DNA of 64,000 nt from Gammaproteobacteria bacterium (lineage in GTDB: Bacteria; Pseudomonadota; Gammaproteobacteria; Steroidobacterales; GCA-2729495). The stretch's first letter is position 1, and every line of letters begins with the position of its first letter. Of the stretch, positions 10,768 to 57,818 are shown piece by piece. A program made the translations under genes and the position numbers. Location of the stretch: the NCBI GenBank assembly GCA_024277915.1, contig JAJRUG010000128.1:1-64000 (forward strand), given 5' to 3'. A model generated the notes under the pieces. The model was not told where the DNA came from. It worked only from the letters and a program-made list of their open reading frames with translations, and made no database searches.

Positions 10768-10850
10768 GAGGATACGTACCGTTAACCCTTGCGGCGAAAT
10801 ACGGACCGCAGGGAGCCATCCGCCTGCAAGGGTTAACGGTACGTATCCTC
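10768..10850. repeat. Long perfect hairpin repeat, copy A
   Basis: A 25-bp perfect inverted repeat (10768-10792 and 10826-10850) encloses a 33-base loop. The loop contains GGACCGCAGGGAGCCATCCG, shared with copies B and C at 54.1 and 57.7 kb. The element is preceded by TGTCAGAGGA and followed by TCCTCGGG, as in the other copies. Its arms differ from theirs at many positions but remain fully complementary to each other. No T-tract follows, so it does not look like an ordinary intrinsic terminator. It lies between the start of a flavin-binding protein gene and a tRNA gene; the bases around it (10626-10906) show no other gene. Confidence 0.85.
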
Positions 10851-10906
10851 GGGGGATACCGTCCTGGCGAATATTGGCCCCCGTTTATTACGGTTTCTAA
10901 GAAAAT

Positions 10907-41942: not shown

Positions 41943-42164
41943 ATCGGTTTGCAGGTCGATTCGGGCTTCGCGCAGGTTACGGGCTTTGTCCGGGATGCAC
42001 AAGGTGTGCCGGATTATGGTTAATCCTCACACTGGCAGCGGCCTCCATAGGCTATGCTAGGCATTGTATGTCGGTCTATATAGAGTCTGTTTCTGTCCGT
42101 GGTTTTGTTGCTACGGAGGCGGACGATAATAACAGACAGACCGGTGCTCGTTCCTTCCATTGTG

Positions 42165-44486
42165 ATGCCCATGAACGATATCTGGCTGATTAGTGCGCTC
42201 GTGGCAGCCTTTCTGGGGCTGGGGTTGCTGTGCCTGTACTGGTGGGTCAGCAAACGTCGCTATGCCCGGGATATCGGCACGCTCCACGAGGAGATTGTGG
42301 ATGCTGCGGAGAACGCAGCATTTGGAAAACGGATCACCGGGTTGCGGGGATCTTCCGAGCTGATTGAGCTGGGCGATATCATCAATCAGCTATTTGATGC
42401 TCTGCATTCGAAAGACGGGCAGCTGCGTCAGGCAGAGGCGATGTTTCCTGACCTCGTTAATACCATGCCGGAAGTGGTTGTGGTGCATCGAAAGCACATT
42501 ATATTTGCCAATCATATTGCAGCAGGAATGCTGGGTGTTACAGCAGCACAACTTACCGGTAAGCCTTACACAGATATGATTCGTCCGGCCTACCGGGCGA
42601 TGATGCGCAAGTCGGTCGACAAACGCCTGGCCGGGGAAGAGGTTCCGGAAAAGCACGAAATACAATTGATTAATGGTGAAGAACGGGGGCTGTGGTTCGA
42701 GATTACCTCCGGCTTGATCAACTATCGCGGGCAGCCGGCCATTCTTTCGATTGGCAGGGATATCAGTTACCGCAAAAGCATCGAGGCGAATCTTGGCAGA
42801 AGCAAACATCAGGCACAGGTGACGCTTGAGTCCATCGGGGAGGGTGTGATTACCACAGACACCCAGGGAATTATCGACTATATGAATCTTGCTGCGGAAA
42901 GGCTCACCGGCGTCGCCCGTAATCATGCAGTGGGAAAAACCCTGGCTGACATTGTGAACCTCGTTGATGAGACTGATCGCCGCGATCTGGGCGACCCGGT
43001 TGCCCGGTGCCTGATGGATCGCCGCCAGATCAGTATGGGGCGCAGGGCAGTCATGGTGTCTGCTGACGGGAATGATGAATTGTCTATCGAGCTTACCGCA
43101 TCACCTATAAAGGGAGTGGGCGAGGCCCTTGCCGGCGTGGTGGTCATTATGCATGACGTCACAGAAATGCGTGGCCTGAACAGGCAAATGAGTTACCAGG
43201 CGGCACATGATCCACTGACCGGCCTGATCAATCGACGGGAATTTGAACGCAGACTGGAGTTGTCTCTGGGATCCGCGCACAAAGCGGAAGTGAACCACAT
43301 CCTGTGTTACCTGGATCTGGACCGTTTCAAGGTGGTGAACGACACTTGCGGCCATGCAGCCGGCGACAATATGCTGCGGGAAGTGGCAACCCTGATCAGG
43401 GATCAGGTACGGGATTCAGACTTTGTGGCACGACTTGGCGGTGATGAGTTTGGTCTGTTGTTATTCGGTTGTCCGCTGAAAAAAGCCCGGCAAATTGCCG
43501 ATGATGTCTGTACGGCCGTCAGGGACTACCGGTTTGTATGGCAGGACAGGATATTTACCATTGGTGTCAGTATCGGTCTGGTAGAGGTTGGCCGGGAAGC
43601 CGGCACCATGAAGGAAATGCTCAGTGCTGCAGACTCCGCTTGTTATATCGCCAAGCAACAGGGTCGCGGACAGGTGCATATCTATTCGGCGAAAGATGAA
43701 GTATCAGCCAGGCAACGAGGTGAAATTCGCTGGTTGCATATGCTACAAACAGCTCTTAAGGAAGACCGCTTCGAGATCCATACCCAGCCGATCATTTCAG
43801 TCACGGGTAAAGGGGAACATGGGCCGGCTATCGAAATCCTGTTGCGTATGATCGGTGATGACGGGCAGTTTATTTTACCGAAGCAGTTCATTCAGGCTGC
43901 GGAGCGGTACCAGCTCATGGTCAACGTAGACAGGTGGGTGGTGCAATCAACCCTGGCAGCGGTCGGGCAGGGCGCTATCAGGCTGCCTGAAAACCGGAGT
44001 TGCAGTATCAATCTCTCCGGGCAGACACTTGGTGAGGAGTCTTTCCTGGAATTCGTTGTGGATTGCCTCGATCACAGTCAGGTTGATCCGGTAGATATCT
44101 GTTTTGAGATCACTGAATCAGCCGTCATGGCTAATCTTGAGCAGGCGCGCCGATTCGTTGATGTGCTGCATGGCATGGGCTGTCAATTTGGCCTGGATGA
44201 TTTTGGCAGCGGTGTCGGTTCTCTTGCGCGACTGAAAGATCTGTCGATTGATTACCTGAAAATCGATGGTGCTTATACACATGACCTGGGCGAGGAAACA
44301 CTCAATCGGCAGGTGGTCGTAGCGGTGACAAAAATGGCAAGGGCAGTCGGTTTCAGGGTTATTGCTGAACAGGTCGAGGAACAAGAAGACTTCGATGCAT
44401 TGCGTGATATCGGTGTCGACTTCATCCAAGGGTATTTCGTCAATCATCCACGCCCGCTTGGTGAAAGCAACAGTCCAAGGCATTAG
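42165..44486 (+). CDS. PAS-GGDEF-EAL c-di-GMP turnover protein
   Basis: 773 residues from ATG 42165; a GTG at 42099 extends the frame by 22 residues and neither has a clear ribosome-binding site. One N-terminal membrane segment (ISALVAAFLGLGLLCLYWW), two PAS domains (about 90-200 and 215-340), GGDEF at 425-429 with an RxxD I-site (RDSD) just before it, and an EAL domain in which the signature is EIL (Glu557), followed by FEITESAV, FGLDDFGSG and LKIDGAY. Metal-binding Glu and Asp residues appear present, so phosphodiesterase activity is likely; both activities are possible. The stop codon lies at the edge of broken hairpin copy D. Confidence 0.92.
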   Translation: MPMNDIWLISALVAAFLGLGLLCLYWWVSKRRYARDIGTLHEEIVDAAENAAFGKRITGLRGSSELIELGDIINQLFDALHSKDGQLRQAEAMFPDLVNTMPEVVVVHRKHIIFANHIAAGMLGVTAAQLTGKPYTDMIRPAYRAMMRKSVDKRLAGEEVPEKHEIQLINGEERGLWFEITSGLINYRGQPAILSIGRDISYRKSIEANLGRSKHQAQVTLESIGEGVITTDTQGIIDYMNLAAERLTGVARNHAVGKTLADIVNLVDETDRRDLGDPVARCLMDRRQISMGRRAVMVSADGNDELSIELTASPIKGVGEALAGVVVIMHDVTEMRGLNRQMSYQAAHDPLTGLINRREFERRLELSLGSAHKAEVNHILCYLDLDRFKVVNDTCGHAAGDNMLREVATLIRDQVRDSDFVARLGGDEFGLLLFGCPLKKARQIADDVCTAVRDYRFVWQDRIFTIGVSIGLVEVGREAGTMKEMLSAADSACYIAKQQGRGQVHIYSAKDEVSARQRGEIRWLHMLQTALKEDRFEIHTQPIISVTGKGEHGPAIEILLRMIGDDGQFILPKQFIQAAERYQLMVNVDRWVVQSTLAAVGQGAIRLPENRSCSINLSGQTLGEESFLEFVVDCLDHSQVDPVDICFEITESAVMANLEQARRFVDVLHGMGCQFGLDDFGSGVGSLARLKDLSIDYLKIDGAYTHDLGEETLNRQVVVAVTKMARAVGFRVIAEQVEEQEDFDALRDIGVDFIQGYFVNHPRPLGESNSPRH

Positions 44487-44491
44487 CTGCC

Positions 44492-44587
44492 CGATTGGCA
44501 CGACGATTCAAGCAGTGAGAGACAGGCAGAAATGTAGAGGCAGGTGGTTCAATCCCGAGGATAGGTGCCGGTTACCCTTTCCTGCGG
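44492..44587 (-). repeat. Broken hairpin repeat, copy D (tail and one arm only)
   Basis: In minus-strand reading, one hairpin arm (44557-44582, nearly the same as the arm of copy B with one base missing) is followed by the conserved CCTCGGGATT..ACCACCTGC block (44540-44560) and, after a variable gap, a 20-base block at 44492-44511 identical to 54231-54250 of copy B. The loop and the opposite arm are missing. At the loop edge (TCCTGCGG) the sequence switches to an hppA-like fragment. It lies between convergent genes. Confidence 0.75.
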
Positions 44588-44626
44588 TATCTTTGTAGGG
44601 GCCGCCTACGGTATCACCGGCGACCG
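44580..44626 (-). pseudogene. 47-base fragment matching the 3' part of hppA
   Basis: 44580-44626 is identical to 49898-49944 except at two positions. That part of hppA encodes the conserved [14 protein letters not shown] motif of H+-pyrophosphatases. Identity includes third codon positions, so it is a recent copy from this gene or a very close one rather than convergence. It directly abuts the truncated hairpin D. A further block, 44639-44667, resembles 49679-49707 in the REP patch beside hppA (25 of 29 bases). Confidence 0.75.
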
Positions 44627-44652
44627 AGAGGATTTGGAGGTGCCGGTGTTCA

Positions 44653-46062
44653 CTATTTAACTATCGGTCCAGACCAGGCTTCCTGCCATGCCTGAAACTC
44701 CAGCGGCTTTAATTGATATCGGGCAAAATTTCCTTCATGCATGCCAAGCAGTTCACTCTCGGCTACTTCTCTGAACTGTTCGCGTGCGGCAGGTTTAACG
44801 TGTTCTTCTGACCAATCAGCGATGCACACGAGTGCTGCCTTCTTGTTCATCCGTTCACGTACGATATGACCGATGAGGTTACGTAGCCCGATACGGTGCT
44901 CTAGTCTGAAGGGGTCCGGTTCTCCGAGTGATTGTCTGACAGCCATATACCGTGAGGCAGAACGCTCATAAGCCAGAATGAAGAGGTCTTTCAGCAGGTC
45001 AACCTTGTTGAGCTCGTATACACCAAGTACCGCTTCCGTGTAATTTTTCGTTGGAACATCGGTGAAAGACAGAGGTGTCAAGTTGGCTTTGATCAGAGGG
45101 ATGTTGGCAGCAAGGCGCGATACACGTTTGTTCACATCGTCAAACGGTTGCAGATACGGTAACTGCACCATGATGAATAATGATTGTTCAAAAGGGTTTT
45201 TAATCGCAGTGGCCGTCACCAGTATCTGGTCGAAATACTCTTCTATAAGTTGAGGCACTTCGAGCGGGTGAAAAGTCGACTTCTGTATACCGATGGCAAT
45301 GTGCCGCAGTCGTCCTGCTGATTCCGGTTCTGCGAGCAGGTTGTTTGCGAGCAGGGCATGGAGGTTGAGAACTGTGTGACGATTGAAACCTGTTTCCCCG
45401 GCCGAACCAACGAGAAATTCTATTGCATCTTTGTGGTTCAGAATCATCTGGGCTTCGAGCCGGGCCTTACCTTTGGCTTCTTCACCGAAAGCGATAAGAC
45501 GCCTGGTATCGAGAAGAGAATAGGTGTTGCCCTCAAGGCGGCTCGAATTCCAGGACAGATCAATGAGCAGGCGGTTCAGTATTTGCTTTGCATGTGTTCC
45601 GGCCGGTTGTTCTGCTGTTGTCAGTGTGCCGATTTCTTCAAGATGTGTGCACTCTTTTTCGGAAAGGTATGCACTGACATTTGGCCGGTAGGCGTCCAGG
45701 AATTCGCGATTGTAGCCAACGGGCTTTCGCTTGAGGATGGGCTTGCGGACATATTTCCGGATTGCAGCAGCACTTTTTGAGATCGGCATATGGGCTTCGA
45801 ACTCTTGTGCATCTTGTGATTCACCATTGACTGCTGGATGTTCCGCTGCTGCCGCAGGAGCTCGGTATTTTACCCAGCGTTTTTCACCTTCCGTGACCAG
45901 GCGTTTTTTGTCCACGAGATATTTCAGGCGATATTGTAGTGTGCGGCGAGGAAGGTCTGTTCCCAATTGACGCGCAATTCCTTGTACGCCGATCCCGTTT
46001 GGGTGGTCGCACACAATCGCCTCAATGGCCTGCAGTTCCTTTGTGGGTATTCGTTTCGCCAA
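44653..46062 (-). CDS. Fic-family protein with N-terminal winged helix and divergent active site
   Basis: 469 residues from a TTG start. The first 70 residues look like a winged helix (GVQGIARQLGTDLPRRTLQYRLKYLVDKKRLV). The Fic core spans about 160-370. An inhibitory-helix motif SSRLEGN (173-179) matches (S/T)xxxE(G/N), placed before the core as in class II Fic proteins. The catalytic loop reads QPFDDVNKRVSR (305-316) where active enzymes have HPFxxGNGRxxR: the His is Gln305 and the first Gly is Val310. Canonical AMP transfer therefore looks impaired; the same QPFxDVNKR form recurs in a known subfamily, so it may be a sensor or use another chemistry. Inverted and direct repeats precede the start. 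Confidence 0.87.
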   Translation of the reverse strand: MAKRIPTKELQAIEAIVCDHPNGIGVQGIARQLGTDLPRRTLQYRLKYLVDKKRLVTEGEKRWVKYRAPAAAAEHPAVNGESQDAQEFEAHMPISKSAAAIRKYVRKPILKRKPVGYNREFLDAYRPNVSAYLSEKECTHLEEIGTLTTAEQPAGTHAKQILNRLLIDLSWNSSRLEGNTYSLLDTRRLIAFGEEAKGKARLEAQMILNHKDAIEFLVGSAGETGFNRHTVLNLHALLANNLLAEPESAGRLRHIAIGIQKSTFHPLEVPQLIEEYFDQILVTATAIKNPFEQSLFIMVQLPYLQPFDDVNKRVSRLAANIPLIKANLTPLSFTDVPTKNYTEAVLGVYELNKVDLLKDLFILAYERSASRYMAVRQSLGEPDPFRLEHRIGLRNLIGHIVRERMNKKAALVCIADWSEEHVKPAAREQFREVAESELLGMHEGNFARYQLKPLEFQAWQEAWSGPIVK

Positions 46063-46088
46063 TGTAGCGCCTGACGTGCAGATTTAGT

Positions 46089-46154
46089 CTATGCGCAATT
46101 AAAACATATATATACGCAACTATCAATTCTATGCGCAATAATACTTGCGCATAG
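46089..46154. promoter_or_regulatory. Operator-like repeats upstream of the Fic gene
   Basis: CTATGCGCAA occurs at 46089-46098 and 46129-46138, with a weaker ATATACGCAA at 46110-46119 and an inverted copy TTGCGCATAG at 46145-46154. The last two exact copies form a perfect 10-bp inverted repeat with a 6-base gap. The direct copies are 19-21 bp apart, i.e. on one face of the helix. The array starts 27 bases upstream of the Fic start; the protein's own winged helix is an obvious candidate ligand. Confidence 0.6.
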
Positions 46155-46273
46155 AGGGGTTCAGGTACACAACAGGTGGAGGGCAAAAGAACCGAAAAAA
46201 TGAGCTGATATCGCGTTGATTCCCGTATGTATTAGTAAAGGGGGATCGAGTTGATTCCCCGGGGGAGTCAACG

Positions 46274-49200
46274 ATGCGTATCAGGTACATAGCAGTAATT
46301 GTTTTCACGATGGTGTTTCTGTCTGCCTGCGGCAGCGGCAACAGCCCTGCATTGCCTGTGGTGCCTGCTGACCCGGGCGATGATGTCACCCCTCCGGTTG
46401 GCATGGTCACCAGCCTCTCGATCACCCCCAGGTCAACCCTGCTCGCAAGACTGGATGATACCCATCAGCTCAATGCCGAACTCCTTGATGAAGACGGCGC
46501 GATGGTCGATAAACCGGTCGCCTGGACCAGCAGCGATCCGAACATTGTCGCGGTGGATGAACAGGGGCTGCTCACCTCCATGGGTACCATCGGCTCAGCT
46601 TCGGTGACGGCGGAGGTGGATGGAGTGACCTCAGGTCCGGTGATCGTGGTGGTGGTATTGCCGGCGCTCAACACACAGTTCGTCAATGATGACCAGGTGG
46701 TCGGCGACATGGAGCTGGTCGACCCCGAGTCACAATATGCCCCCGGTGCACAGTACCGGGTCACGCTGACCGGCATCGATGTGCCTGATATCGGTACGAT
46801 CCTTCTGGCCAGGGAAACGCAGCTGATTGCCGGCGGTGTTGTGGATGTGCAGCAGGATGGCGACGAGATCATCGTCACGCTGGAAGTGCTGCCGATCGAT
46901 GAACTGGTCACCAGCATGAAGATCGACCAGGTATTTGTGCCGACTGAAGATGACATCACGATGTCACAGGAAGCCTCGGAATATTACACGATGGAACGTC
47001 TGGAAGACGGCAGTTACCTGTTTACGCTATTACCGGATACACCCGTCGCAGAGCCTGTGGGCAGCTCGGTACAATCAGCGCGCACTGCTGATTCCATGGT
47101 ACAGGCAATACGCCCCCCCGATTCCACCGTGCAGGCGGTGATCGGTACGGTAGCCAATCCCTTTTATCCCTTTGACTGCAAATTCACCGGGCCAAGCTTC
47201 ACTGGCAATTCCGGCAACGAGGTTTTTACACTGCAGGGCTTGTCACCCACCATTGGTCTGGAAAAGGATATCTCCCTGCCGTTTGTTTATGACAGCGCCT
47301 TGGGTGGTTTGCAGGAGATCAAGCTACAGGCGAGGGTCAAGGGGACTTTTACTTTCAGGAACAAGCTGTCTGTCCAACTGGAAGGCAAGGCAGGTTGCAA
47401 GCTGAAACTGCTGGAGATCCCTGTTCCGTTTCCTGCGCCCTTGGGGCTGGTGCTGGGTGGCCAGATTCCCCTCGGGATCGGCTTTGAGCTCAGCGGTAAG
47501 GTCACGCTGGCCGATATGGGTTTTGGTGTCACGGCCAATTCTGAACTGCGTATGGAGCTTGGTATGGTTTGCCCCAACGGAGAGAACTGTGCGTTTGACG
47601 AAGACGGAGCTGTTCTTACCGCTACCGGTGAGGCCAAGCCGGTGATTGATTTACCCCCGGGGTTGAGCAACCCGGCAGGGGATCTGAAGTTTGAGCCGGC
47701 CGTTGAGGGGTTTGGCTATGCCGATTTTACCTTCGGGCATCCACTATTCAGTTCATGGCGCATGACCCTGGCCAATCTGCAAGCCGGGGTGAAGGTGGGT
47801 GCCAACCTCGCACTGGTGGAAACCCAGATTGATGATGGGAGCTATGCTTCTGACTACAAGCTGAGTACAGAGTTTTCAGCGAAGCCCGGTGAAGATCTGG
47901 CAGACCTGCTGACCCTGCTGGGCACGAGTCAGCTCAATGCACTGACCCTCACCGACAGTACCATCCTGCTCACCTCTCCGGCAGCGGAAGTCCCGCTGAC
48001 TGCGCCCACAACCAAGCTGATTACAGCAGATGTTGCAAATTACACAGTGGGTGATGTGGTGACTTTTACGGTCAAGCTGGATCCGAGCACCGTCAACTTT
48101 ATTCCGTTTGTCTACAATGTGGATGAGGTGATGATCTACCGGGATAATGAATTAGTCGCTGGTGCCAATGATCCGACCCGGGTGGAGCGGAGAACGGCCA
48201 GTGATGGTCAGACCGAGTTCACTATTACCTGGACGGCGACAGAGAGTGGATCGATCGGCGACAATTTCCATGCATTTGTCAGTACGGACTTGTTGCCGCT
48301 GCCTTATTTTGGAGAGCTGGAACTGGGGAAGGTGAGAGGTTCGTCCGCCGATAAGGCCTGGGGTAGTGCCGAGCTGATCGAGACTGACAATGCAGGGAAT
48401 GCATACCGTCCACAAATCGCCATTGATAATAACGGCAATGCCATCGCGGTGTGGCTCCAACACGATGGCACGCGCTGGAACATCAGGGCCAACCGCTTTG
48501 ATGGTACAAGCTGGGGCAGCGCCGAGCTGATTGAAACCAACAACGCAGGAGATGCATTCGATCCACAAATCGCCGTTGACGGTAACGGCAATGCCCTCGC
48601 GGTGTGGGCCCAATCTGATGGCACCCGCAATAACATCTGGGCCAATCGCTTTGATGGCACAAGCTGGGGCAGCGCCGTGCTGATTGAGACTAACAACGCA
48701 GGAAATGCATTCGCTCCACAAATTGCCGCTGATAACAACGGCAATGCCCTCGCGGTGTGGCAGCAATCCGATGGTACCCGCTTTAACATCTGGGCTAAGC
48801 GCTTCGATGGCACAAGTTGGGGCAGCGCCACACTGATTTCGACCAACAATGCAATCGGTGGATTTGTTCCGCGAATCGCTTTTGATAACAACGGCAATGC
48901 CCTCGCGGTGTGGCGGCAATTCGGTGGCACCCCTATTATCAGCAGCATCTGGGCCAACCGCTTTGATGGCACAAGCTGGGGCAGCGCTGAGCTGATTGAG
49001 AACAACAATGCAGGGGATGGATGGGAGCCGCAAATCGCTTTTGATAACAACGGCAATGCCCTCGCGGTGTGGCAGCAATTCGATGGCCCCCAAGGCGACC
49101 CCAGCTCCCGCGATGGCATCTGGGCCAACCGCTTTGATGGCACAAGCTGGGGCAGCGCCGAGCAGATTGACACCAACAATGCAAGAGGTACATTCGGTCA

Positions 49201-49576
49201 GCAAATCGCTTTTGATAACAACGGCAATGCCCTCGCGGTGTGGCAGCAAGGCGATGGCATCTGGGCCAACCGCTTTGATGGCACAAGCTGGGGCATCGCT
49301 GAGCTGATTGAGACCAACAACGCAGTCAATGCATCCCGTCCGCAAATCGCTGTTGATAGCAACGGCAATGCCCTCGCGGTGTGGCACCAATCCGATGGCA
49401 TCGGGGCCAACCGCTTTGATGGCACAAGCTGGGGCAGCGCCGAGCTGATTGCGACCAGCATTGTAAGCGGAGCAGACTCTCCACAAATCGCCTTTGATAA
49501 CAACGGCAATGCCCTCGCGGTGTGGGGGCAATCTGATGGCACCCGCTTGAACATCTGGGCGAACCGCTTTGAATAA
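46274..49576 (+). CDS. Large lipoprotein with Ig-like domain and eight C-terminal tandem repeats
   Basis: 1100 residues. A GGGGGAG site precedes the ATG by 6 bases, and the N-terminus is a lipoprotein signal (MVFLSACGSGN). Residues about 44-128 form a bacterial Ig-like (Big_2) domain (LNAELLDEDGAMVDKPVAWTSSDPNIVAVD). A middle beta-rich region of unknown type follows. Residues 696-1100 consist of eight repeats of mostly 51 residues: WGSAELIETNNAG, then PQIAFDNNGNALAVW, then IWANRFDGTS. Each repeat resembles a blade-like beta unit, so an eight-bladed propeller is plausible. It is likely surface or periplasmic, possibly an adhesin or glycan-binding protein. It is divergent from the Fic gene. Confidence 0.85.
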   Translation: MRIRYIAVIVFTMVFLSACGSGNSPALPVVPADPGDDVTPPVGMVTSLSITPRSTLLARLDDTHQLNAELLDEDGAMVDKPVAWTSSDPNIVAVDEQGLLTSMGTIGSASVTAEVDGVTSGPVIVVVVLPALNTQFVNDDQVVGDMELVDPESQYAPGAQYRVTLTGIDVPDIGTILLARETQLIAGGVVDVQQDGDEIIVTLEVLPIDELVTSMKIDQVFVPTEDDITMSQEASEYYTMERLEDGSYLFTLLPDTPVAEPVGSSVQSARTADSMVQAIRPPDSTVQAVIGTVANPFYPFDCKFTGPSFTGNSGNEVFTLQGLSPTIGLEKDISLPFVYDSALGGLQEIKLQARVKGTFTFRNKLSVQLEGKAGCKLKLLEIPVPFPAPLGLVLGGQIPLGIGFELSGKVTLADMGFGVTANSELRMELGMVCPNGENCAFDEDGAVLTATGEAKPVIDLPPGLSNPAGDLKFEPAVEGFGYADFTFGHPLFSSWRMTLANLQAGVKVGANLALVETQIDDGSYASDYKLSTEFSAKPGEDLADLLTLLGTSQLNALTLTDSTILLTSPAAEVPLTAPTTKLITADVANYTVGDVVTFTVKLDPSTVNFIPFVYNVDEVMIYRDNELVAGANDPTRVERRTASDGQTEFTITWTATESGSIGDNFHAFVSTDLLPLPYFGELELGKVRGSSADKAWGSAELIETDNAGNAYRPQIAIDNNGNAIAVWLQHDGTRWNIRANRFDGTSWGSAELIETNNAGDAFDPQIAVDGNGNALAVWAQSDGTRNNIWANRFDGTSWGSAVLIETNNAGNAFAPQIAADNNGNALAVWQQSDGTRFNIWAKRFDGTSWGSATLISTNNAIGGFVPRIAFDNNGNALAVWRQFGGTPIISSIWANRFDGTSWGSAELIENNNAGDGWEPQIAFDNNGNALAVWQQFDGPQGDPSSRDGIWANRFDGTSWGSAEQIDTNNARGTFGQQIAFDNNGNALAVWQQGDGIWANRFDGTSWGIAELIETNNAVNASRPQIAVDSNGNALAVWHQSDGIGANRFDGTSWGSAELIATSIVSGADSPQIAFDNNGNALAVWGQSDGTRLNIWANRFE
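48359..49573 (+). repeat. Eight in-frame tandem repeats of about 153 bp
   Basis: The repeats are 51, 51, 51, 53, 57, 47, 47 and 48 residues long. The DNA of the repeats is nearly identical in the block coding for NNGNALAVW and in the NRFDGTSWG block, with variation focused on the segment after AVW and after TNNA. Such even homogenisation indicates recent duplication or gene conversion, and copy number probably varies between strains. Confidence 0.85.
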
Positions 49577-49604
49577 ATGAATAAATAGGGTCACACCAAT
49601 GTTT

Positions 49605-49724
49605 GGGGTCAGAGTAAAAACTCTGTTTATGGGGTCAGAGTAAAAACTCCAGGAAATGAACGACTGCTGTCTGATTGTGGTGCCGGTGTTAGCTATTTAT
49701 CTATTGGGTTATTACTCTGACCCT
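49605..49724. repeat. REP-like repeat patch (GGGGTCAGAGTAAAA motifs)
   Basis: GGGGTCAGAGTAAAAACTC occurs twice directly (49605-49624 and 49631-49649) and a matching inverted end, TTACTCTGACCC, at 49711-49722. This GGGTCAGAGT form is the end sequence of REP/RAYT-type elements in many gammaproteobacteria. No transposase gene is present here, so it is a remnant or a non-autonomous unit. The internal stretch 49679-49707 is related to 44639-44667. Confidence 0.7.
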
Positions 49725-49777
49725 AATTATTGATCCGCGACCTCTTCGTGAAAGCCAAAGACCGGGGAGACATCCAT

Positions 49778-49805
49778 AAAAAAAGGGCCCGCAAAGCGGG
49801 CCCTT
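49778..49805 (-). terminator. Intrinsic terminator of hppA
   Basis: Minus-strand hairpin AAGGGCCCGC-TTT-GCGGGCCCTT (10-bp stem, 49783-49805) followed by a run of T (A-run at 49778-49784 on the plus strand). It is 26 bases beyond the hppA stop codon. Confidence 0.9.
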
Positions 49806-49831: not shown

Positions 49832-51874
49832 CTACAGTAACGGCACCATCAGCAATGCAACAATGTTGATGATCTTGATCAACGGGTTAATCGCAGGTCC
49901 TGCGGTATCTTTGTAGGGGTCGCCTACGGTATCACCGGTGACCGCAGCCTTGTGGGCTTCGGAACCCTTGCCGCCGACATTACCATCTTCGATATATTTC
50001 TTGGCATTATCCCAGGCGCCACCACCAGTGGTCATGGAAATCGCCAGGAAAATTCCGGTAATAATCGTACCAATCAACAGGCCGCCCAATGCACGGATGG
50101 CTTCATCCGGTCCCATCAGAAAACGGATGATCACTACCAGAATAATCGGAACCAGCACCGGCAGCAGCGACGGAATAATCATTTCCTTGATCGCAGATTT
50201 GGTCAGCAGATCAACAGCACGGGAATAGTCAGGCTTGGTGGTGCCTTCCATGATGCCGGGGATTTCGCGGAACTGACGACGAACCTCCTCAACCACTGAT
50301 CCGGCTGCGCGGCCAACGGCTTCCATTGCCATCGAGGCAAACAGATAGGGCACCATGCCGCCGATGAACAGGCCGATAATGACGGCGGGATCGGACAGCG
50401 AAAAGTCCTGCGCTCTGCCTGCAGCCGCGAGGTTATTGGTGTAATCAGCGAATAATACCAGTGCAGCCAGGCCTGCCGAGCCGATGGCGTAGCCTTTGGT
50501 GACAGCCTTGGTAGTGTTGCCGACTGCATCAAGAGGATCAGTAATGCTACGAATCTCGGCGGGCAGTTCAGCCATCTCGGCGATACCACCAGCGTTGTCC
50601 GTGATCGGCCCGAATGCATCAAGAGCTACGATCATACCGGTCATCGACAGCATAGATGTCGCAGCAATAGCAATACCGTAAACACCGGCAAGCTCGTAGG
50701 AGCCATAAATACTGAGACACACGGCGATCACAGGCCAGGCTGTAGATTTCATTGATACGCCGAGACCGGCAATAATGTTGGTTGCATGACCTGTCGATGA
50801 GGCATTGGCCACTTTTTGCACCGGACTGAATTCGGTACCCGTGTAGTACTCGGTAATGAATACCAGGGCAGCTGTCAGTGCCAGTCCGATTACAGCAGCT
50901 CCCCAAAGGCCGATGGTAGATATTCCTTCGATTCCGCCCATGGTCATGTCAGTCACGAACCAAAAAGCAATCGCTGCCAGCACACCCGACACGATGACAC
51001 CTTTATAGAGGGCGCCCATGATTTTGCCACCCTCGGAAGTCTTGACGAAAAATGTGCCAACAATCGATGCGATGATCGATACTGCGCCAAGTACCAGGGG
51101 ATACAGCACGCCGGCATTGTTCTCGATCAACAGACTGCCCAGCAGCATGGTGGCAACAATCGTGACCGCATAGGTCTCAAACAGGTCGGCCGCCATGCCC
51201 GCACAGTCACCCACATTGTCGCCAACGTTATCAGCGATAACCGCGGGGTTGCGGGGATCATCTTCAGGAATCCCGGCTTCAACCTTGCCGACCAGATCAG
51301 CACCAACATCCGCACCCTTGGTGAAAATGCCGCCGCCCAGCCGGGCGAAAATGGAGATCAGGGAGCCGCCGAATGCGAATCCGACCAGGGCATGCAGTGC
51401 CTCATCAGTGCCGGTACCCATGGCGATCAATATCCAGTAGTAGCCTGCTACACCAAGCAGTGCCAGACCTACCACCAGCATGCCGGTGATTGCGCCACCC
51501 TTGAATGCCACCTGCAAGGCCGGGTTGATTCCTGAGAAGGCAGCCTGAGCTGTGCGTACATTGGCACGTACGGGAATATGCATGCCCAGAAAGCCGGTGG
51601 CTCCGGACAACAAGGCACCCAGTGCAAAGCCGATACCGGTTTTAACACCGAGTGTGACGAGCAGCACGACGCACAGGATGACACCGACAATGCTGATGGC
51701 AAAGTACTGGCGCTTAAGGTAGGCCATGGCCCCTTCCTGAATAGCGCCGGCAATCGACTGCATCCGCTCATTACCTGCTGGTTGTTTTAGCACCCAGCGG
51801 GCAGTTAGTGCACCGTAGAGTACGGCTAGTAGTGATGCGCCAATGGCCAGCCAAAGCGCTGTATCGGTTGACAT
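49832..51874 (-). CDS. hppA: Membrane proton-pumping pyrophosphatase HppA (K+-independent type)
   Basis: 680 residues with about 16 hydrophobic segments. Pyrophosphate-binding motifs are complete: [34 protein letters not shown] near 210-240, [12 protein letters not shown], and the C-terminal [23 protein letters not shown]. The K+-dependence switch is Lys ([10 protein letters not shown], Lys456), the form of K+-independent H+-pumps; K+-dependent enzymes have Ala. It couples PPi hydrolysis to proton export. AAGGGGAG precedes the ATG. An extended -10 (TGCTATCAT) in the last codons of the upstream pfp gene may serve as a promoter. A strong terminator follows. Confidence 0.97.
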
Positions 51875-54096: not shown

Positions 54097-54250
54097 GAGG
54101 AGTAGGTGCCGGTTACCCTTTCCAGCGGAGTAAAGCGGACCGCAGGGAGCCATCCGCAGGAAAGGGTAACCGGCACCTACTCCTCGGGATTAAACCACCT
54201 GCGTTAACGTTTCCGCCGGTTTTTATTTGTTTGAATCGTCGTGCCAATCG
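54097..54250. repeat. Long perfect hairpin repeat, copy B, with conserved tail
   Basis: A 27-bp perfect inverted repeat (54097-54123 and 54159-54185) encloses a 35-base loop; GCGGA and TCCGC at the loop edges add five more pairs after an A-A mismatch. The flanks are GATGTCAGAGGA and TCCTCGGG. A tail follows with ATTAAACCACCTGC and, after a variable stretch, a 20-base block (54231-54250, starting TTGAATCGTCGTGCC) identical to one in copy D. Sits in the 322-base space between convergent adk and rnd, which holds no gene. Confidence 0.88.
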
Positions 54251-57672: not shown

Positions 57673-57818
57673 GAGGACAGGTAGCTGGTACGCCTTTCCA
57701 GCGGAGTAAAGCGGACCGAAGGGAGCCATCCGCAGGAAAGGCGTACCAGCTACCTGTCCTCGGGGTTTACCGCCAATCTTGTCGTTTGCCCGTCTCACCT
57801 CGCTTGAATGGTCGTGCC
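57673..57818. repeat. Long perfect hairpin repeat, copy C, with tail
   Basis: A 27-bp perfect inverted repeat (57673-57699 and 57735-57761) with a 35-base loop that differs from copy B's loop at one position. Arms differ from copy B at nine positions and each change is matched on the other arm. Flanks are again GATGTCAGAGGA and TCCTCGGG, and a tail block TTGAATGGTCGTGCC (57804-57818) corresponds to that of copies B and D with one change. It lies between the convergent rubredoxin and TraB/GumN genes. Confidence 0.88.

What the first reader, a model, noticed from the sequence alone, without database searches (positions are those of the whole stretch)
44554..44667. Mosaic junction: half a hairpin fused to a fragment of hppA and a REP piece
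Copy D keeps one arm, then at TCCTGCGG switches to 47 bases identical in 45 positions to the hppA 3' coding region (49898-49944). The same eight bases TCCTGCGG occur in hppA, so the switch point is an 8-bp shared word. A further block, 44639-44667, matches the REP patch next to hppA (49679-49707, 25 of 29). Two neighbouring pieces of the 49.6-49.9 kb locus thus reappear at 44.6 kb in swapped order. This looks like template switching at a hairpin during replication. The Fic stop codon lies in the copied REP-like piece.
Basis: partly seen in the sequence, partly recalled or inferred. Interest (0 to 1): 0.7.

Follow-up and report, generated by a model that had tools for sequence, protein, structure and literature searches.

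The report
Scar of an insertion beside hppA
The odd patchwork is best read as the worn edge of a 5-kb DNA insertion that landed between two genes that are direct neighbours in most relatives checked, duplicating bits of both gene ends, after which short-repeat deletions chewed away part of a hairpin repeat; it is a clear fossil of ordinary processes, not a long-distance copying jump.

Summary
In detail: half a hairpin (to 44587) fused at TCCTGCGG to 47 bp of hppA (45/47), then a REP-like block (25/29). The long-range template-switch reading is not needed. In the one same-genus genome and most relatives checked, the EAL gene (here ending 44486) and hppA (ending 49832) are convergent neighbours, 45-270 bp apart; here they are 5.3 kb apart. 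The interval holds cargo not found in any other same-family genome searched (Fic gene, 1100-aa lipoprotein). The right end of the insert carries a decayed second copy of the EAL 3' tail (49734-49764, 24/31, in frame, its stop abutting the old terminator). So the insert is flanked by duplicated pieces of the original EAL-terminator-hppA junction, and the 47-bp hppA piece is the fossil of the left-hand copy. Both base differences are derived in the fossil (26/26 relatives match the intact gene) and break the VGDPYKDT motif. The 8-bp junction is best read as a microhomology deletion between the hairpin arm and the adjacent hppA remnant. The REP block is a dispersed repeat, also found in relatives. 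How the insert entered is undetermined. Interest is modest. A 59-copy hairpin family was found in passing.

The parts
42099..44486 (+). PAS-GGDEF-EAL gene; the neighbour of hppA in most relatives checked
44447..44477 (+). EAL 3' tail, left copy of the duplicated junction
   Evidence: 24/31 match to 49734-49764
44475..44495 (+). Collapsed hairpin Q of copy D: CCAAGGCATTAGCTGCC joined to spacer at CGAT; supplies the EAL stop codon
   Evidence: comparison with intact copies
44493..44553 (+). Spacer of the two-hairpin repeat
   Evidence: 84-89% to other copies
44554..44587 (+). Left arm of hairpin P, truncated before its loop
44580..44587 (+). TCCTGCGG, 8-bp word shared by hairpin arm and hppA; deletion junction
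44580..44626 (-). hppA fossil (45/47 to 49898-49944); two derived nonsynonymous changes
44639..44667 (+). REP-like repeat; contains the Fic stop codon
   Evidence: relatives
44653..46062 (-). Fic-family gene, insert cargo; not found in the other same-family genomes searched
46274..49576 (+). 1100-aa repeat-bearing Big_2-like lipoprotein gene, insert cargo; no relative in 59 other genomes
49679..49707 (+). Second REP-like copy, direct orientation, at the right end of the insert
49734..49764 (+). Decayed second EAL 3' tail (frame IDPRPLRESQRP..., running on to stop TAA at 49777-49779)
   Evidence: 0 of 2000 shuffles and 0 of 1268 windows score as high
49778..49803 (.). Original terminator between the EAL gene and hppA (A-tract plus GGGCCCGC/GCGGGCCC stem)
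   Evidence: aligned with G001
49832..51874 (-). Intact hppA (H+-pyrophosphatase)
49898..49944 (-). hppA segment encoding [15 protein letters not shown], source of the fossil

Best explanation
The mosaic is the left edge of a ~5.1-kb insertion (about 44627-49730: Fic gene, lipoprotein gene, REP pieces) that entered the EAL/hppA convergent junction and left a direct duplication of that junction, originally at least ~210 bp (EAL tail, terminator, hppA 3' end). The right copy is largely intact, with decayed EAL tail, terminator and functional hppA. The left copy has been eroded. A two-hairpin repeat inserted at the EAL end; its hairpin Q collapsed at a 4-bp repeat (CGAT); and an 8-bp-repeat deletion (TCCTGCGG/TCCTGCGG) removed the rest of hairpin P together with the terminator and last ~22 codons of the redundant hppA copy, joining the hairpin arm to the 47-bp remnant. 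Shown: ancestral adjacency, reciprocal duplicated pieces, origin from this lineage's own hppA, polarity of the two changes. Inferred: single insertion-duplication event, order of events, slippage or deletion mechanism, mode of entry.
For: EAL and hppA are direct convergent neighbours in the same-genus genome G001 (49 bp) and many relatives across several families. Cargo is lineage-specific: Fic in 0 of 36 other family genomes, lipoprotein in 0 of 59 other genomes. The fossil is collinear with the original order and orientation (EAL tail, then hppA piece) and closer to this genome's hppA (45/47) than to any relative's (at most 39/47). The right flank carries the EAL tail in frame, ending in TAA at the old terminator as in G001. 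Fossil differences are derived (26/26 relatives T,T) and nonsynonymous (T->A, D->G in VGDPYKDT). A chance overlap of 8 bp or more at a random junction is about 1e-4. Another family member, G015, has its EAL 3' end (65/70) repeated 5.2 kb away inside its own EAL-hppA insert.
Against: The two EAL tails (24/31) are more diverged than the two hppA pieces (45/47), so they may not date from one event, or the right tail may be from a donor strain. No left-copy terminator or hppA tail survives, so the original length of the left copy is inferred. The insert has no recognisable integrase or transposase gene. REP copies near both ends could indicate another route of capture.
Confidence: 0.72

Rival explanations
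1. Templated insertion by template switching: replication stalled in the hairpin arm, the nascent strand jumped through TCCTGCGG to hppA, copied 47 nt and jumped back. hppA was then only ~150-200 bp away, before the cargo arrived, so this is a local rather than 5.3-kb switch.
For: 8-bp microhomology at the first switch; a strong hairpin at the stall site (intact P folds at about -66 kcal/mol with RNA parameters); short fragment length typical of templated insertions.
Against: Does not explain the reciprocal EAL tail on the other side of the insert; needs two jumps; no microhomology was identified at the right end of the 47-bp piece (44626/44627).
Confidence: 0.15
2. Integrative element using the 3' end of the EAL gene or hppA as attachment site; the duplicated gene ends are att-like repeats and the hppA piece is the displaced gene end. 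This is a possible mode of entry within the best explanation rather than fully exclusive of it.
For: Direct repeats of gene ends flank the insert; another family member repeats its EAL 3' end inside its insert; the EAL-hppA interval holds different inserts in several relatives.
Against: No integrase recognised among the insert's two large genes; no common core or fixed boundary among the genomes compared.
Confidence: 0.15
3. The REP copy and the hppA piece were copied together from the 49.6-49.9 kb locus in swapped order.
For: Only three good REP copies exist in the draft genome, two of them at the two ends of this insert.
Against: Similar REP-like copies occur in other genera and families, in G032 right after a Y1_Tnp gene; a copy in another family (G107) matches the 44639 copy as well (25/28) as 49679 does; ancestral adjacency makes a 5.3-kb source unnecessary.
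Confidence: 0.04
4. Assembly or binning chimera.
For: Draft assembly of 178 contigs.
Against: Duplicated pieces are diverged, not identical, and the fossil carries derived changes; the junction lies mid-contig.
Confidence: 0.05

Closest known systems
Microhomology (short direct repeat) deletion by replication slippage at hairpins
   Same: Deletion endpoints in an 8-bp direct repeat, one copy in a strong hairpin; slippage between short direct repeats across a hairpin is shown in vitro for two archaeal replicative polymerases (PMC4134008).
   Different: Here inferred from one fixed ancient event; the partner copy is a redundant gene remnant.
Insertion-duplication (Campbell-type or homology-facilitated illegitimate integration; genomic islands duplicating a gene 3' end; named from general knowledge)
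   Same: Cargo flanked by directly repeated gene ends, with one complete gene copy retained.
   Different: No integrase found; the duplicated pieces on the two sides are different remnants of the junction, unequally decayed.
REP / RAYT (REP-associated tyrosine transposase) repeats (PMC2817692)
   Same: The 29-bp block recurs in relatives, once beside a Y1_Tnp gene and once as an inverted pair.
   Different: Only three good copies in this draft genome and no Y1_Tnp gene detected in it.

Membership tests
Insertion with flanking duplication | Empty site in close relatives | tested here: met
   G001 and many relatives have EAL and hppA adjacent
Insertion with flanking duplication | Direct repeats of the target on both sides of the cargo | tested here: inconclusive
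   Both an hppA piece and an EAL tail occur on each side, but each is partial on one side and no single full-length repeated segment survives intact
Insertion with flanking duplication | Cargo absent from close relatives | tested here: met
Site-specific integrative element | Integrase or recombinase gene | tested here: inconclusive
   No Pfam recombinase in the two large cargo ORFs; smaller ORFs not scanned
Microhomology deletion | Shared word at the junction beyond chance | tested here: met
   8 bp, probability about 1e-4 for a random junction
Long-range template switch | Template distant from the insertion site at the time | tested here: not met
   hppA is adjacent in the order inferred as ancestral
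REP repeat of RAYT type | Recurs in relatives next to a Y1_Tnp gene | tested here: met
   L056, (one case)
REP repeat of RAYT type | High copy number with cognate transposase in the same genome | tested here: not met
   3 good copies; no PF01797 match in the 92.5% complete draft

The most novel reading that the evidence does not exclude
The convergent EAL/hppA junction is a recurrent capture site in this family, where incoming DNA duplicates the ends of the flanking genes through an unrecognised integration route.
Probability: 0.15. Interest if true: 0.45.

Novelty: new member of a known kind. Interest (0 to 1): 0.27.

Why it matters
It shows how a within-genome mosaic that looks like a long-distance template switch resolves, once ancestral gene order is known, into an insertion scar plus short-repeat deletions. 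The locus offers a natural series (empty site, duplicated ends, decay) for studying how convergent intergenic junctions capture DNA and how hairpin repeats erode.

Tried and rejected
Plasmid and phage collections, distant mode: no match. Viral contigs for the exact hairpin loop: none. Rfam: only a tRNA in the window. REP-like sequences around Fic homologues and Y1_Tnp loci elsewhere: none in 848 kb, so the REP block is not part of the Fic gene's usual surroundings. Full mosaic in relatives: none. A fixed truncation point for half-hairpins was considered and rejected: the truncated copies inspected end at different places. Literature searches for the integration route gave nothing specific.

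Full report
WHAT IS THERE. The two matches are exactly as described: 44580-44626 equals the hppA segment 49898-49944 in 45 of 47 positions, and 44639-44667 equals 49679-49707 in 25 of 29. The left part, 44492-44587, is a copy of a dispersed repeat. Complete copies consist of two strong hairpins, here named P and Q, facing away from each other across a ~75-bp spacer. Copy D keeps the spacer and the left arm of P up to TCCTGCGG. Its Q hairpin has also collapsed, joining CCAAGGCATTAGCTGCC to the spacer at a CGAT shared by both sides. The combination 1-214 of the query occurs once in the genome and in none of the other genomes searched.

ANCESTRAL ORDER. Searches with the EAL protein and with HppA put the two genes side by side and convergent in the one same-genus relative, with 49 bp between stops, and in many relatives across several families, usually 45-270 bp apart. 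In this genome they are 5.3 kb apart. The interval holds a Fic gene and a 1100-aa lipoprotein gene. No Fic relative was found in the 36 other genomes of the same family searched (it occurs in a few other families of the order), and no lipoprotein relative in any of the 59 other genomes. Fic relatives at about 60-69% identity are scattered over Alphaproteobacteria and other groups, in keeping with horizontal acquisition. The hppA piece thus lies about 95 bp from the EAL stop, where the hppA 3' end would have been.

THE RECIPROCAL PIECE. On the other side of the insert, 49734-49764 matches the EAL tail 44447-44477 in 24 of 31 positions without gaps; none of 2000 shuffles and none of 1268 other windows score as high. 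It is in the EAL frame (IDPRPLRESQRPGRHP*), and its stop TAA runs directly into the A-tract of the terminator that precedes hppA, as the EAL stop does in the same-genus relative. The insert is therefore flanked by duplicated parts of the original junction: EAL gene plus hppA piece on the left, EAL tail plus terminator plus intact hppA on the right.

ORIGIN AND POLARITY OF THE hppA PIECE. It is closer to this genome's own hppA (45/47) than to that of any of 26 relatives (at most 39/47). At both differing positions all 26 relatives agree with the intact gene, so both changes arose in the fossil. They would change T to A and D to G in the strongly conserved [13 protein letters not shown] stretch, as expected for a copy no longer under selection.

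THE JUNCTION. The arm-to-hppA switch falls in an 8-bp shared word; an overlap this long or longer is expected at about 1 in 10,000 random junctions. In the left copy as reconstructed, the hairpin repeat would have lain directly beside the terminator and hppA tail, so a simple deletion of roughly 200 bp between the two TCCTGCGG words yields the observed sequence. Slippage across a hairpin between short direct repeats has been shown in vitro for two archaeal replicative polymerases (PMC4134008). That this particular event happened by slippage is inference. A local template switch is a rival but does not account for the EAL tail on the far side.

THE REP BLOCK. Similar sequences occur in other genera and families: in G032 immediately behind a gene with a Y1_Tnp domain, in G013 as an inverted pair, and in G107 with 25/28 identity to the 44639 copy. 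Its presence on both sides therefore need not mean that it was copied together with hppA. This draft genome has only three good copies, two of them at the ends of the insert, and no detected PF01797 gene. Recombination between REP copies during capture of the cargo is therefore possible but untested.

RECURRENCE. Another genome of the family (G015), with 10.9 kb between the two genes, repeats its own EAL 3' end (65/70) about 5.2 kb into the interval, directly beside another repeated block. G031 has a 41-bp tandem repeat of the EAL end and G004 a 123-bp repeat in the interval. The junction looks like a recurrent site of insertion and end duplication. No common core or integrase was identified, so the mode of entry is left open.

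LIMITS. The genome is a draft of 178 contigs and no reads were available. The two EAL tails are more diverged than the two hppA pieces; either the right tail evolved faster or it came with donor DNA. The order of hairpin insertion, cargo insertion and deletion is inferred.

Noticed in passing
window 10768-10853, 54097-54250, 57730-57818 and 59 loop matches across the genome: A family of 59 hairpins with a nearly invariant apical loop (ATGGCTCCCTGCGGTCCGCTTTA) and stems that vary but mostly stay nearly fully paired (26 P and 33 Q by a simple rule, many distinct stems), often in P-spacer-Q pairs about 145 bp apart and mostly between convergent genes (27 of 42 loci with both flanks assigned). It is patchy among relatives: many copies in G001 and G041, few or none in most others. 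The copies in the window have no Rfam match.
   Followed up: partly
L290 (G015), L300 (G031), L120 (G004): Duplicated EAL 3' ends or intergenic repeats in the EAL-hppA interval of other family members, independent of the case studied.
   Followed up: partly
window 49597-49732: Inverted GGGGTCAGAGTAAAAAC / GTTATTACTCTGACCC repeats around the right REP copy, perhaps the remains of a mobile element.
   Followed up: no
window 48328-49572: Eight tandem repeats spaced 141-171 bp in the lipoprotein gene (NGNALAVWQQSDGT-type units).
   Followed up: no
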